DNA of 64,000 nucleotides, taken from the NCBI RefSeq assembly GCF_022760955.1, contig NZ_JAKTNU010000002.1:1-64000 (forward strand), in the 5' to 3' direction. Below the pieces are notes generated by a model. It did not search any database. It was not told where the DNA came from and was given only the letters and a program-made list of their open reading frames with translations. Positions 51,796 to 56,796 of the stretch are shown here, piece by piece; the stretch's first letter is position 1, and the number at the start of each line of letters is the position of its first letter. Position numbers and translations under genes: made by a program. This DNA comes from Thermus neutrinimicus (GTDB lineage: Bacteria > Deinococcota > Deinococci > Deinococcales > Thermaceae).

Positions 51796-54162
51796 GTGCG
51801 CACCCTAAGCCTTCTTCTCCTCCTGGGCCTTGCCCTGGCCACCCCGTTGGAGGAGGCGCGGGAACTCTATGCCCAAGGGGAGATGGCCGGGGTCTTGGCC
51901 CGCCTTGGCCCTCTTCTCCAGGGCTACGACCCTCCGGAGGAGGCCTTGCTCCTTGCGGGCTTCGCCCAGTACCGCTTAGGACGCCTGGAGGAAGCCCTTT
52001 TCACCTTCAGCCGGCTGGTGGGCACCTTGAAAGGGGGTAGCGAGGCCCTTTACGGATTCGGCCTAACCTTAAGGGCCTTGGGGGACCCGGAAGGGGCGAG
52101 AGCCGCCCTGGACTGGGCCCTAAGGCAGGGTTACCGGGAGGCAGAAGGCATCCTGGATAGCCTTCCCCCGCCTCCTTCCTTAGCCCCCAAGGCCCGCAAG
52201 GCCCCGCCTCCTTTCCGTGCGGAGAAGGGAAGGCTTTGGATCGGGGACAAGCCCTTCCAGGTGCGCGGGGTCAACCTGGGGGTGGCCTTGCCCGGGCGCT
52301 TTCCCGCGGAGTTCCCGGAGGAGGAAGCCCTCTACCGGGCCTGGCTGGAGCTCCTTTCCGCCATGGGGGCCAACACGGTGCGTACCTACACCCTCTTACC
52401 CCCCGCCTTCTACCGGGCCCTTTGGGGCCACAACCGCCTCCACCGGGACCGGCCCCTTTACCTTTTCCAGGGGGTATGGACCGAGCTCCCGGAGGAGGAG
52501 GGCCTCGAGGACTGGGAGGGGCCTTTCTTGGATAGGTTCCTCCTTGAGGGCCGAGAGGTCTTGGACGCCCTCCACGGAAACCTCAGCCGCCCACCCCGCC
52601 CGGGCCATGCCCATGGGGAGTACGCCGCCGATGTCTCCCCTTGGGTTATGGGCCTCTTGGTGGGCCGGGAGTTCGAGCCCTACTCGGTGGAAGCCTACAA
52701 CCGGCGCCATCTAGGCCGCACCTACTGGGGTAGGTTCCTCGAGGCCTCCCCAGAGGCCAGCCCCTTCGAGGCCTACTTGGCCGAGGTCCTGGACCGCCTG
52801 GCCACCTACGAGTGGGAGGCCTATGGAACGGCGCGCCCCCTAAGCTTCGTCAACTGGCCCACCCTGGACCCCCTAAGCTGGCCAAGCGAGGCGGGTTTGC
52901 GGGAAGAGTATGAGCTGCGCCGCGCCCGTGGGGAAAAGGTGGAACCACCCCGTCCAGGACCTGTCCACGAGGAGGATACCGTTACCCTAGACCCCACCCA
53001 CCTGAAACCTACGCCGGGTAGCCCCGTAACCCTCTTCGCCACCTACCACGTCTACCCCTACTACCCCGATTTCCTGGTCAATGAACCGGAACTGTCCCCA
53101 AACCGCTTCCGGGCCTACCTGTCCCGCCTAAAGGCCCACCACGGGGAGATGCCCCTCCTCATCGCCGAGTTTGGCCTGCCCAGTAGCCGGGGCATCGCCC
53201 ACCTTCACCCCGAAGGCCTCCACCACGGGGGGCATTCCGAACCCGAGCAAGCGGAAAAGGTCCTGGCCCTTTGGCAGGACATTGCTAGCTTGGACCTGGC
53301 CGGAGGGATGGTTTTTGCCCTCATGGACGAATGGTTCAAGAGAAACTGGCTCGTGGCCCCCTTTGAGCTTCCCACCCCACGCGACCCCTTCTGGCACAAC
53401 CTCCTGGACCCCGAGGAGAACTATGGCCTCATCGCCGCCACCGCTAAGGAAACCTTCCGGCTGGATGGCCAGGGGCAGGAATGGGAGGCCATACCCTTCC
53501 TCCTCCGGGAAGAAGGGCGCCTCCTCAAGGCCCATGCGGACCCCGAGTACCTTTGGCTCCTCTACCTAGGGCCCTTACCCTTAAGGCTTTGCCTGGACAC
53601 CGTGCCCGGCGGGGTTCCGGTGACCGAGGGGTTTGGAGCGGAGTTCCTCCTGGAGGTGAACGCCGAGGGGGGAAGGCTTCTGGCGGAGAAGGGGTATTAC
53701 CCCTTTCAAGAGCTGGACCATGGCCTGCCCGGAACAGAATACCTCCACTTCCGGGGGGCCACGCGGCCGGGGTCAGGACCCTTTGTACCCTTCCTCCTCG
53801 AGCCCAACCGCCGGCGCACCGGTCGGGACGGCACCGACTACCCCCGCATCGTCTACGAGCTGGGGAAGCTCCAGCGGGGCCAGGACCCCGAAGGAGCCCG
53901 GGACCCCACGGCGGACTACGCCCTGGGAAAGGAGGGGCTAGTGGAACTCCGCATTCCCTGGGGCATGCTCCTCATCACGGACCCCAGCCAGCGCCTGGCC
54001 TGGTACGCTCCTGGGCCTATCCCCATAGACGGCATCCGCCTCCTCCTCCCAGGGGCCCCACCCGTCCGCTTTTCCTGGCCCACCTGGGAGGAACCCGCCT
54101 TCACCCTAAGGCTTAAACCCCTCTACTTCCGCCTTCAGGAGCTCTGGCGAGGAGGGCCTTGA
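51796..54162 (+). CDS. Exported TPR plus glycoside-hydrolase-like protein
   Basis: 788 residues, GTG start three bases after the ligase gene. Signal peptide 1-16; helical repeats (TPR-like) 18-130; a proline-rich joint; then a TIM-barrel-like domain starting FQVRGVNLGVALPG, with LSAMGANTVRTYTLLPPAFY, and the two acid motifs typical of clan A glycosidases: LLIAEFGLPSS (E458) near the strand-7 position and ALMDEWFKRNW (D511, E512). The C-terminal 220 residues are beta-rich. It likely cleaves or transfers sugars outside the cell. It overlaps murJ on the other strand by 50 bases. Confidence 0.7.
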   Translation: MRTLSLLLLLGLALATPLEEARELYAQGEMAGVLARLGPLLQGYDPPEEALLLAGFAQYRLGRLEEALFTFSRLVGTLKGGSEALYGFGLTLRALGDPEGARAALDWALRQGYREAEGILDSLPPPPSLAPKARKAPPPFRAEKGRLWIGDKPFQVRGVNLGVALPGRFPAEFPEEEALYRAWLELLSAMGANTVRTYTLLPPAFYRALWGHNRLHRDRPLYLFQGVWTELPEEEGLEDWEGPFLDRFLLEGREVLDALHGNLSRPPRPGHAHGEYAADVSPWVMGLLVGREFEPYSVEAYNRRHLGRTYWGRFLEASPEASPFEAYLAEVLDRLATYEWEAYGTARPLSFVNWPTLDPLSWPSEAGLREEYELRRARGEKVEPPRPGPVHEEDTVTLDPTHLKPTPGSPVTLFATYHVYPYYPDFLVNEPELSPNRFRAYLSRLKAHHGEMPLLIAEFGLPSSRGIAHLHPEGLHHGGHSEPEQAEKVLALWQDIASLDLAGGMVFALMDEWFKRNWLVAPFELPTPRDPFWHNLLDPEENYGLIAATAKETFRLDGQGQEWEAIPFLLREEGRLLKAHADPEYLWLLYLGPLPLRLCLDTVPGGVPVTEGFGAEFLLEVNAEGGRLLAEKGYYPFQELDHGLPGTEYLHFRGATRPGSGPFVPFLLEPNRRRTGRDGTDYPRIVYELGKLQRGQDPEGARDPTADYALGKEGLVELRIPWGMLLITDPSQRLAWYAPGPIPIDGIRLLLPGAPPVRFSWPTWEEPAFTLRLKPLYFRLQELWRGGP

Positions 54163-55600
54163 GGGGCAGGCGCAGGGCTATGGCCCCCAAAAGGAAAAGC
54201 CCCAGGCCTAGCCCCCCGCCCACCACGAGGGGTAGGAGGGCCTCCGTGGCGCTTCGAGTGGGAAACACCTGGGCCAAGACCAAGCCGGGCAAGGCGGCCA
54301 AGAGCCCTGCCAATAGGGCCCGGAGGAGAAAGGGCGGGAACCCCCAAAGCCCCACTCCCTCCCGGGCCAGAAGGCGCAGGTAAAGGAAAAGCCCCAGATA
54401 CCCTGCCAAGGCGGTGGCCAGGTTCAGGGGAAAAAGCCCGGCATCCCGGAGAAACCAGTACCCCAGGGTGTTGGTCAGAAACACGGTGGCGCTAGCGGAA
54501 ACCGCCTCCCGGATCCGCCCCAGGGCGTAAAGCCCCCTTAGGAGCAGGGTGTTCACCCCCCAGGGCAACACGGCAAAACCCAGGGCCGCCAGAACCTGGG
54601 CGCTGTAGGCCCGGTTCTCCGGGGTTAGAGGGCCAAAGAGCCCGAAGAGCACCACCACCACAAAGGGGGCTAGACCGGTGAGAACCCCCCCCAGGAGGGC
54701 CAGGAGAAGGGTAAGCCGGCGCAAAGGACCCAGGAGGAAACGGGCGAGGGCCTCGCCCCTCAGGGCGCTCATCCTGGGGAACAAGGCGATGGCCGGCGAG
54801 GTGGCAAAAAGCCCCAGGACCATCTGGAAGACCACCTCGGCGTTGTAGAACCCCGTGACCGCCGCCGGGGGGTAGCGGGTGAGGATATGGGTCAGGACCA
54901 GGTTTAAGAACTGGCGCAAGGAGGTGGTGAAGGCAAAGGGCCCCATCCGCCCCAAGGCTGGGAGGAAGGCCTGGTGCCAGCGCCACTCCAGGACATAACC
55001 CCTAAGGAAAGGCAGCTGGACCAAGGCCTGGACCAGCCCTCCCAGGGCCACGGAAAGCCCTAGGAAAGTGGGGTCTCCCGGGAATAGGGCCATGAGGCCG
55101 ATGGCCACCAGGTTGAAGGCCACTGGACCCAAGGCGTAGGGGAGAAAGCGTTCCTCCGCCTGAAGAAGGGCGGAGAAAAGCGCCGCCATGGAGATGCCCA
55201 GGAGAAAGGGTAGGAGAAGCCGGGTGAGGTAGACCACCTGGGCCAAGCCCCCGTCCTCCCGCAGGTGGCTTTCCCCAGCCACCAAAAGCCCCACCACCCA
55301 AGGGGCCAGGAGATACCCCAGGCCCAAAACCAGGAGGTTAACCCCCAACAGGAAAGCTCCAAAGCGGCGGGCAAAGGCCCGGGCCTCCTCCGGGGGCAGG
55401 CCCTTTAGAAGGGGGATGAGGGCGTTCTGCACCGCCCCCTCCGCCAGTAGCTCCCGGAGGAGGTTGGGCACCCGGTAGGCCACGTTGAAGGCATCCTTCA
55501 GGGCGTCGGGGTAGAGGGCGTTGAAGACCGCCTGGCGCACCAGGCCCAAGACCCTCGAGGCCAAGGTACCCCCCATGACCAGGAGGACCTTACGCAGCAT
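54113..55600 (-). CDS. murJ: Lipid II flippase MurJ (MviN)
   Basis: 495 residues with about 14 membrane helices. MurJ marks: SRVLGLVRQAVFNALYPDAL, DAFNVAYRVPNLLRELLAEG with AVQNALIPLL, SLRQFLNLVLTHILTRYPPA. It moves lipid II across the membrane for peptidoglycan synthesis. Its ATG lies inside the end of the upstream nuclease-like gene, so they share a message. Confidence 0.93.
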   Translation of the reverse strand: MLRKVLLVMGGTLASRVLGLVRQAVFNALYPDALKDAFNVAYRVPNLLRELLAEGAVQNALIPLLKGLPPEEARAFARRFGAFLLGVNLLVLGLGYLLAPWVVGLLVAGESHLREDGGLAQVVYLTRLLLPFLLGISMAALFSALLQAEERFLPYALGPVAFNLVAIGLMALFPGDPTFLGLSVALGGLVQALVQLPFLRGYVLEWRWHQAFLPALGRMGPFAFTTSLRQFLNLVLTHILTRYPPAAVTGFYNAEVVFQMVLGLFATSPAIALFPRMSALRGEALARFLLGPLRRLTLLLALLGGVLTGLAPFVVVVLFGLFGPLTPENRAYSAQVLAALGFAVLPWGVNTLLLRGLYALGRIREAVSASATVFLTNTLGYWFLRDAGLFPLNLATALAGYLGLFLYLRLLAREGVGLWGFPPFLLRALLAGLLAALPGLVLAQVFPTRSATEALLPLVVGGGLGLGLFLLGAIALRLPLKALLARAPEGGSRGV

Positions 55601-56654
55601 TCCCTTCCAGCACCTCCTGGAATATTTCCAAAAAGTTCGCCTGGTTGACCACCGTGAGGCCGTGGAGGGCGGAAAGCTCCTTGGCGCGGGCCTTGTCCAT
55701 GCCCAAAAGCACCAAAAAGCTCTCCCTGGCGGATAGCCCCAGCACCTTCTTCAGCCCCGCGTACTTGGCGATGTGGGCCTGGAAATCCCCCGTTTTAGCC
55801 TCAAACCAGAAAAACCGCTCCCCTACCCTGAGGAGCACATCCAGCTCCATGCTGTCCCCGTTGGGCAGGGTGACCTGGTAGCCCACCGCCACCTCGTGAG
55901 GCAGGTTCTTGGAGCGCAGGAACTTGCGAAGCCTTTCCGCCACGTAACGCTCCAGCCAACCCCCGGTGAGGAAGTTCTGCACCCACCCCTCCGTGCTGGC
56001 CTTGGCCCGGATGCGCCGTTCCTCGCTCTTGTAGTGGTAGGAGGTGAGGAGGGCATACTGCTTGAGCATGGTGCAGAACTGGGTGGAGTTGGCGATCTCC
56101 TCCTGGGTGGCCTCGGAAAGGGAGAGCTCAAACTGCCGCTTGGTGGAAAGGCTTTGCTTGAGGCGCTCGTAAAGCTTCTCCAGGCTGGAATAGCGGTCCC
56201 CCAGGAAGAGGGCCAGCCGGGTCAACACCTTCTCCTTTTCCTCCTCCTCCTGCGGCTTCTTCACCACCTGGATGCCCAGACCCTTCAGCCATTCCTCCAG
56301 CGAGGCCGCCCTTTTCCCCCTCGAGGGCTCCGGCACCCGGCTGGGCGAGGCCAAAGCCGCCTCCGCCCCCCCGGGCTCCCGGAAAAGACGCCAGATCTCC
56401 CGGGTCAGGGCCAGGAAACGGGTGCGCACGGGATCCTCGGCTCCCTCCAGACCCGGCGGGGTAAGGCCCGAGCGCAGGGTATCCAAAAGCCAGGCCTCCA
56501 GGGCTTCCTGAAGGCTCTCCCGGGCGGCCTCGAGGTGGGGAGCCTCCACGCGCAGGCCCAGCTCAGGAAGCTCGGCCACGAAACGGCCAGGGCCCAGGAG
56601 GTCATACCGCGCCTGGGCCATGGACTTTTCCAAATAGCGGGTAAGAACGCCCAC
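55590..56654 (-). CDS. HicB-like domain fused to PD-(D/E)XK nuclease-like domain
   Basis: 354 residues from GTG 56654 (ATG 56666 is the alternative). Residues 3-70 follow the HicB antitoxin pattern: TRYLEKSMAQARYDLLGPGR, then FVAELPELGLRVEAPHLEAA, ESLQEALEAWLLDTLRSG. A charged helical linker follows. The C-terminal third reads as a restriction-like nuclease: GGWLERYVAERL (E235), SMELDVLLRV (D272), FFWFEAKTGDF (E285, K287), then KYAGLKKVLGL. The E-x-K after a strand with D is the PD-(D/E)XK core; a similar tail is found in DUF1887/Card1-type nucleases. No HicA toxin gene is near. Function unknown; a defence or regulatory role is possible. Confidence 0.65.
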   Translation of the reverse strand: MGVLTRYLEKSMAQARYDLLGPGRFVAELPELGLRVEAPHLEAARESLQEALEAWLLDTLRSGLTPPGLEGAEDPVRTRFLALTREIWRLFREPGGAEAALASPSRVPEPSRGKRAASLEEWLKGLGIQVVKKPQEEEEKEKVLTRLALFLGDRYSSLEKLYERLKQSLSTKRQFELSLSEATQEEIANSTQFCTMLKQYALLTSYHYKSEERRIRAKASTEGWVQNFLTGGWLERYVAERLRKFLRSKNLPHEVAVGYQVTLPNGDSMELDVLLRVGERFFWFEAKTGDFQAHIAKYAGLKKVLGLSARESFLVLLGMDKARAKELSALHGLTVVNQANFLEIFQEVLEGNAA

Positions 56655-56661
56655 GCACCTA

Positions 56662-56667
56662 AGCATA
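56662..56667 (-). promoter_or_regulatory. Leaderless-type -10 box of the HicB/nuclease gene
   Basis: TATGCT on the minus strand, seven bases before the GTG at 56654. It lies after the tRNA-Leu terminator, so this gene and murJ are probably transcribed on their own. Confidence 0.4.
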
Positions 56668-56684: not shown

Positions 56685-56705
56685 GGCCCCGGGAAACCCG
56701 GGGCC
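56685..56705 (-). terminator. Rho-independent terminator after tRNA-Leu
   Basis: GGCCCCGGG with its reverse complement around a three-base loop (nine-bp stem), followed on the minus strand by AAACCTTTTT. It is four bases downstream of the encoded CCA end of the tRNA. Confidence 0.75.
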
Positions 56706-56708
56706 CCA

Positions 56709-56796
56709 TGGTGCCGGGGACGGGACTCGAACCCGTACGGGGGTAACCCCCCAGCGGATTTTAAGTCCGCAGCGTCTACCGTTCCGCCACCCCGGC
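56709..56796 (-). tRNA. tRNA-Leu (anticodon TAA)
   Basis: Acceptor stem GCCGGGG pairs with CCCCGGC. Anticodon stem-loop GCGGA-CTTAAAA-TCCGC gives anticodon TAA, reading UUA and UUG. It has the long variable arm of leucine tRNAs (GGGGGGTTACCCCC), T-arm GGGTTCGAGTCCC, discriminator A and an encoded CCA (56711-56709). It sits 15 bases after the LCP gene on the same strand, perhaps cut from its transcript. Confidence 0.95.

What the first reader, a model, noticed from the sequence alone, without database searches (positions are those of the whole stretch)
55590..56654. HicB-like antitoxin domain fused to a PD-(D/E)XK nuclease domain
The N-terminal 70 residues match HicB and the C-terminal third holds E235, D272, E285 and K287 in the order of restriction-like nucleases, with a tail like DUF1887/Card1 enzymes. 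No HicA gene is present. A self-contained regulator-nuclease could be a defence or toxin-antitoxin-like system. It is transcribed with murJ, so it could also act at the envelope or replication.
Basis: partly seen in the sequence, partly recalled or inferred. Interest (0 to 1): 0.7.

Follow-up and report, generated by a model that had tools for sequence, protein, structure and literature searches.

The report
HicB-fused Can2-like nuclease of Thermus
Every Thermus genome examined carries one gene that joins an antitoxin-type HicB domain to a DNA/RNA-cutting domain otherwise known from CRISPR-activated immune enzymes, as if an antitoxin had replaced the usual alarm-molecule sensor; it looks like a regulated nuclease that has become a fixed part of these bacteria.

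Summary
The nuclease half belongs with the Can2/Card1/VC1899 (DUF1887) enzymes. E270 and D272 match Can2's E276/D278, whose double mutant is inactive, and all five residues are invariant in 38 orthologues. Both folds are supported by AlphaFold and Foldseek. It is not a mobile defence gene: it is in 27/27 Thermus genomes, always beside murJ, and in related genera without murJ. It does not need type III CRISPR signalling: no Cas10 was detected in G000. Between argA-like and carA genes, eight Thermus and a sister genus carry a HicB-HicA toxin-antitoxin pair, while ten Meiothermus-group genomes carry the HicB-nuclease fusion there. One further genome has an intact hicA directly before the fusion. 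I conclude that a Can2-type nuclease has a HicB antitoxin domain in the position of the CARF sensor, and most likely acts as a HicB-gated, metal-dependent nuclease. Its trigger and substrate are unknown. It is a new variant of known kinds, not a member of either parent system.

The parts
55590..56654 (-). HicB-nuclease fusion gene, 354 aa from GTG 56654 (stop 55590-55592)
56448..56654 (-). HicB/UPF0150 domain, residues 1-69 (alpha-beta-beta-beta-alpha)
   Evidence: Pfam UPF0150 9.5e-15; PDB 2dsy TTHA0281 5e-10; AF2 pLDDT about 85-89 over most of it; dN/dS 0.13
56304..56447 (-). variable linker, residues 70-117
   Evidence: AF2 pLDDT below 50 for most of it; dN/dS 0.41
55977..56303 (-). helical middle region, residues 118-226, matching the part that follows CARF in CARF-PDDEXK proteins; winged-helix reading inferred, not shown
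   Evidence: PADLOC PDLC01880 over 116-328; dN/dS 0.11; AF2 low confidence for most of it
55593..55976 (-). PD-(D/E)XK nuclease domain, residues 227-354
   Evidence: PADLOC, Pfam sub-threshold Card1_endonuc, Foldseek VC1899/Cdn1/Can2 prob 1.00
55839..55847 (-). E270-L-D272, equivalent to E276/D278 of Can2
55794..55802 (-). E285-A-K287, the E-x-K motif
55950..55952 (-). E235 in GGWLERY
56662..56667 (-). TATGCT -10 element, 7 nt before the GTG start; probable leaderless promoter
   Evidence: the pattern is described for Deinococcus-Thermus in PMC12340547 (abstract)
56685..56705 (-). terminator-like hairpin after tRNA-Leu, separating it from the fusion gene
56709..56796 (-). tRNA-Leu (TAA)
54113..55600 (-). 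murJ (lipid II flippase), overlaps the fusion gene by 11 nt
   Evidence: Pfam MurJ 2.8e-64; link conserved in 27/27 Thermus

Best explanation
A Can2/Card1-type metal-dependent nuclease in which a HicB antitoxin domain stands where the CARF sensor stands in those enzymes. Shown by sequence and fold: the two domains, the intact active site, purifying selection on both domains, core-gene status in Thermus, independence from type III CRISPR, and the shared chromosomal site with a hicBA toxin-antitoxin pair. Inferred: HicB supplies the dimer contact and holds the nuclease in check, as CARF does in Can2; release, by loss or displacement of the HicB restraint or by binding a partner protein, lets the C-terminal domain nick or cut DNA and possibly RNA. 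In Thermus this has become a fixed, self-contained stress or damage-response enzyme expressed from its own leaderless promoter ahead of murJ.
For: UPF0150 match and 2dsy. PADLOC CARF_PDDEXK 2.4e-15, matched by 14/14 family members. Profile hits to Cdn1, Can2, Card1 and VC1899 at 3.5e-7 to 3.2e-6. Foldseek top hits VC1899, Cdn1, Can2, probability 1.00. E270/D272 equal Can2 E276/D278, required for activity (PMC7969007); all catalytic residues invariant in 38 orthologues. dN/dS 0.13 HicB, 0.11 middle, 0.13 nuclease, against 0.41 for the linker. 27/27 Thermus beside murJ. Cas10 palm over the cut-off in only 16/27 Thermus and not detected in G000. argA|carA: hicBA in eight Thermus and G071, remnants in four, fusion in ten Meiothermus-group genomes. 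hicA 11 bp before the fusion in G060.
Against: No activity, oligomeric state, partner or ligand was measured. The middle region is poorly modelled (pLDDT below 50 for most of 134-231). Gating by HicB is an analogy. The number of fusion events is unresolved: HicB-less relatives are not cleanly separated in the nuclease tree. Shared position at argA|carA suggests, but does not prove, that HicA was replaced by the nuclease in one step.
Confidence: 0.6

Rival explanations
1. HicA-controlled version: the HicB domain still binds a HicA toxin in trans, so the protein is an antitoxin that carries its own nuclease, and HicA binding switches or reports on the nuclease.
For: HicB domain 44-48% identical to HicBs paired with HicA at argA|carA; intact hicA (Pfam 31.3 bits, cut-off 27) directly upstream of the fusion in G060; every Thermus genome has some HicA.
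Against: The argA|carA hicBA is absent or decayed in 19/27 Thermus, G000 included, while the fusion is kept in all; the LPGVWATG stretch of HicB is shortened to L-GLRVEA in Thermus fusions; only one genome has hicA beside a fusion.
Confidence: 0.15
2. Housekeeping DNA-repair or replication nuclease; HicB is only a dimerisation scaffold and nothing is sensed.
For: Core gene, strong purifying selection, operon-like overlap with murJ, not on phages or plasmids; the Can2 nuclease core resembles the mismatch nuclease EndoMS (PMC7969007).
Against: Relatives lie in CRISPR settings: Persephonella homologue upstream of cas7, G035 copy beside cas2 and a three-repeat array; present in only 7 of 18 genomes of genus g4; not linked to repair genes.
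Confidence: 0.2
3. Ordinary type III CRISPR accessory nuclease activated by cyclic oligoadenylate.
For: Nuclease half matches CARF-PDDEXK models.
Against: No CARF domain; no Cas10 detected in G000 and none over the cut-off in ten other Thermus genomes that keep the gene.
Confidence: 0.02
4. Non-catalytic DNA-binding autoregulator of the murJ transcript, like HicB antitoxins with DNA-binding domains.
For: HicB proteins often autoregulate (own knowledge); the middle region may be a winged helix (inferred).
Against: Invariant catalytic residues across 38 orthologues would not be kept; the murJ link is lost outside Thermus and g5.
Confidence: 0.05

Closest known systems
Can2 / Card1 / Cdn1 / VC1899 (DUF1887, CARF-PD-(D/E)XK nucleases)
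   Same: C-terminal PD-(D/E)XK domain with E-x-D and E-x-K, GG-W-x-E motif, and the region that follows CARF
   Different: no CARF domain; HicB-like domain instead; kept without Cas10; core gene
Class 2 hicBA toxin-antitoxin modules (small HicB without DNA-binding domain; TTHA0281 type)
   Same: N-terminal 70 residues are a HicB/UPF0150 domain; shares the argA|carA site across genera
   Different: no HicA partner in most genomes; HicB is fused to a nuclease of a different fold
Class 7 and 8 long HicB antitoxins (PMC10865869)
   Same: long HicB proteins of 216-356 aa
   Different: Class 7 has two DUF1902 domains; Class 8 has a C-terminal HicB domain and a lysyl-tRNA-synthetase-like middle, not a nuclease; the passages read describe no HicB-nuclease fusion

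Membership tests
Can2/Card1 (CARF-PDDEXK effectors) | PD-(D/E)XK domain of the Can2/Card1 type with intact catalytic residues | tested here: met
Can2/Card1 (CARF-PDDEXK effectors) | N-terminal CARF domain | tested here: not met
   N-terminus is UPF0150/HicB; PADLOC match begins at model position 136, after CARF
Can2/Card1 (CARF-PDDEXK effectors) | association with type III CRISPR (Cas10) | tested here: not met
   fusion in 27/27 Thermus, Cas10 palm over the cut-off in 16/27 and not detected in G000
Can2/Card1 (CARF-PDDEXK effectors) | activation by cyclic oligoadenylate | not testable with these tools
   needs purified protein
HicBA toxin-antitoxin module | HicB-fold antitoxin domain | tested here: met
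HicBA toxin-antitoxin module | adjacent hicA gene | tested here: not met
   none beside the gene in the window; in Thermus the neighbours are murJ and usually the LCP gene; one exception elsewhere, G060
HicBA toxin-antitoxin module | HicB neutralises HicA by binding | not testable with these tools
   needs binding or toxicity assay
Defence system (mobile, patchy, island-borne) | patchy distribution, mobile or defence-island context | tested here: not met
   27/27 Thermus, syntenic; no hits in phages, plasmids or viral contigs; patchy only in genus g4

The most novel reading that the evidence does not exclude
A modular exchange between two immune worlds: at a toxin-antitoxin site HicA was replaced by a CRISPR-type nuclease, so that an antitoxin domain took over the job of the second-messenger sensor and HicA, or whatever displaces HicB, became the trigger; the hybrid then became a fixed core gene in Thermus.
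Probability: 0.15. Interest if true: 0.8.

Novelty: new variant of a known kind. Interest (0 to 1): 0.55.

Why it matters
Can2 and Card1 nucleases are studied as cyclic-nucleotide-activated effectors, and HicB as a HicA antitoxin. This fusion suggests the nuclease module can be regulated by a quite different sensor, gives a native HicB-nuclease to dissect in a thermostable host, and offers a site (argA|carA) where antitoxin-toxin and antitoxin-nuclease versions can be compared across related genera. A core nuclease with an antitoxin domain also raises the testable question of what keeps it quiet.

Tried and rejected
Pfam HicB_lk_antitox PF15919 does not match in G000; the right family is UPF0150 PF21748. 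NCBIfam gives nothing useful. No relatives in viral contigs with the protein, the family alignment or the HicB-less paralogue, nor in phages or plasmids. AF2 with 9-10 rows could not resolve residues 134-231; the second job on residues 110-354 improved the nuclease (pLDDT about 90) but not the middle. Only loci allowed for the folding tool were used. Trees of the two halves: fusion HicBs fall on one side of a branch in 78% of bootstraps, while the nuclease tree leaves one or two fusion events open. The envelope reading was set aside because murJ is not linked outside Thermus and g5. Frameshifted copies in G016 and G020 were read as probable assembly errors (G020 murJ and G016 hicA are also broken) and left out. 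Literature search found no description of this fusion, but the library is open-access only.

Full report
The gene is real and its start is right. ORF 55590-56666 runs on the minus strand. The GTG at 56654 is the conserved start. All 24 distinct Thermus copies have a TANNNT -10 element exactly 7 nt before it (TATGCT in 22), while most flanking bases vary, and the upstream ATG at 56666 lies inside that element. This is the leaderless pattern reported for Deinococcus-Thermus (PMC12340547, abstract seen). A terminator-like hairpin after tRNA-Leu separates the gene from the LCP gene upstream. The stop overlaps murJ by 11 nt, and similar overlaps or near-contacts recur in other Thermus. Co-transcription with murJ is inferred, not measured.

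N-terminal domain. Residues 6-67 match Pfam UPF0150 at 9.5e-15, and TTHA0281 (PDB 2dsy) at 5e-10. AF2 gives the alpha-beta-beta-beta-alpha HicB fold at pLDDT about 85-89 over most of it.

C-terminal domain. Residues 116-328 match PADLOC CARF_PDDEXK models at 2.4e-15, from the position after CARF onward. All 14 family members tested match. A family profile finds Cdn1, Can2, Card1 and VC1899 structures at 3.5e-7 to 3.2e-6. Foldseek of the AF2 models ranks VC1899, Cdn1 and Can2 first with probability 1.00. In the alignment, Can2 E276 and D278 fall on our E270 and D272; the E276A/D278A Can2 variant is inactive (PMC7969007). E235, E270, D272, E285 and K287 are invariant in 38 orthologues from Thermus, the Meiothermus group, G035 and g14. 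Pfam Card1_endonuc itself scores below its cut-off (19.8 against 26.4 bits), so the assignment rests on the other lines. The middle region, residues 118-226, is conserved (dN/dS 0.11), but AF2 could not model most of it. Many CARF proteins have a winged helix directly after CARF (PMC4012209), so I infer one here without proof.

Selection and spread. dN/dS in Thermus is 0.13 for HicB, 0.13 for the nuclease and 0.41 for the linker, so both ends are used. The fusion is in 27/27 Thermus, beside murJ in all. It is also in G071 (g5, murJ-linked); in G035, whose single 2.27-Mb contig has the size I recall for Marinithermus hydrothermalis; in the g2, g3 and part of the g4 genomes, which I read as the Meiothermus group; and in four g14 genomes, one of them cut by a contig end. 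It was not found in phage, plasmid or viral collections. Cas10 palm matches over the family cut-off occur in 16/27 Thermus and none was found in G000, so the fusion does not depend on cyclic oligoadenylate.

Origin. The most informative result is the argA|carA site, named from sequence: an argA-like GNAT gene and carA. In eight Thermus genomes and in G071 the site holds a standalone HicB (44-48% identical to the fusion's HicB domain) and a HicA; in two of the eight, HicA is frameshifted in a poor assembly. In four, G000 included, it holds a decayed remnant, and in fifteen it is empty. In ten Meiothermus-group genomes the same site holds the HicB-nuclease fusion. In G060 the fusion lies elsewhere, with an intact hicA (58% identical to the Thermus site HicA, over the Pfam cut-off) ending 11 bp before it. 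HicB-HicA and HicB-nuclease forms are thus alternative occupants of one site. The simplest reading is that HicA was exchanged for the nuclease, but the order of events is not resolved.

CRISPR ties of relatives. A HicB-less homologue, interrupted by a frame break, lies in a Persephonella contig upstream of cas7 (DevR 1.9e-28) and after a weak cas6 match. The G035 copy lies after cas2 (6.7e-23) and three 36-nt CRISPR-like repeats at 78-bp spacing.

Mechanism. In Can2, ligand binding by CARF exposes the active-site cleft between two nuclease domains (PMC7969007). I propose that HicB takes over dimerisation and gating here. The trigger is unknown; it is not likely to be cyclic oligoadenylate. A HicA in trans is possible but not needed in most genomes. 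Substrate and role (stress response, DNA damage, or defence) are open.

Verdict. Observation confirmed; interpretation partly supported; new variant of known kinds. It should not be filed as a Can2/Card1 member, because the CARF domain is absent, nor as a HicBA module, because HicA is absent beside it.

Noticed in passing
L082:1244-3131 (G000:C4:45243-47130): Decayed hicBA remnant between argA-like and carA genes in the window's own genome; HicA is frameshifted.
   Followed up: yes
L059:7085-7351: Intact hicA ending 11 bp before a HicB-nuclease fusion in G060, the only such arrangement seen.
   Followed up: partly
L056:7712-8665, L057, L058, L060: HicB-less paralogue of the nuclease with a short helical N-terminus; in L056 and L058 it lies next to a dGTPase-like gene on the opposite strand.
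   Followed up: partly
L009:5702-6594: HicB-less homologue interrupted by a frame break in Persephonella, upstream of a cas7 (DevR) gene.
   Followed up: partly
L040:6601-7282: cas2 and three 36-nt CRISPR-like repeats (78-bp spacing) directly upstream of the fusion in G035.
   Followed up: partly
window:58001-59305: S8-family serine protease gene whose identity to other Thermus copies (39-76%) is much lower than that of its neighbours.
   Followed up: no
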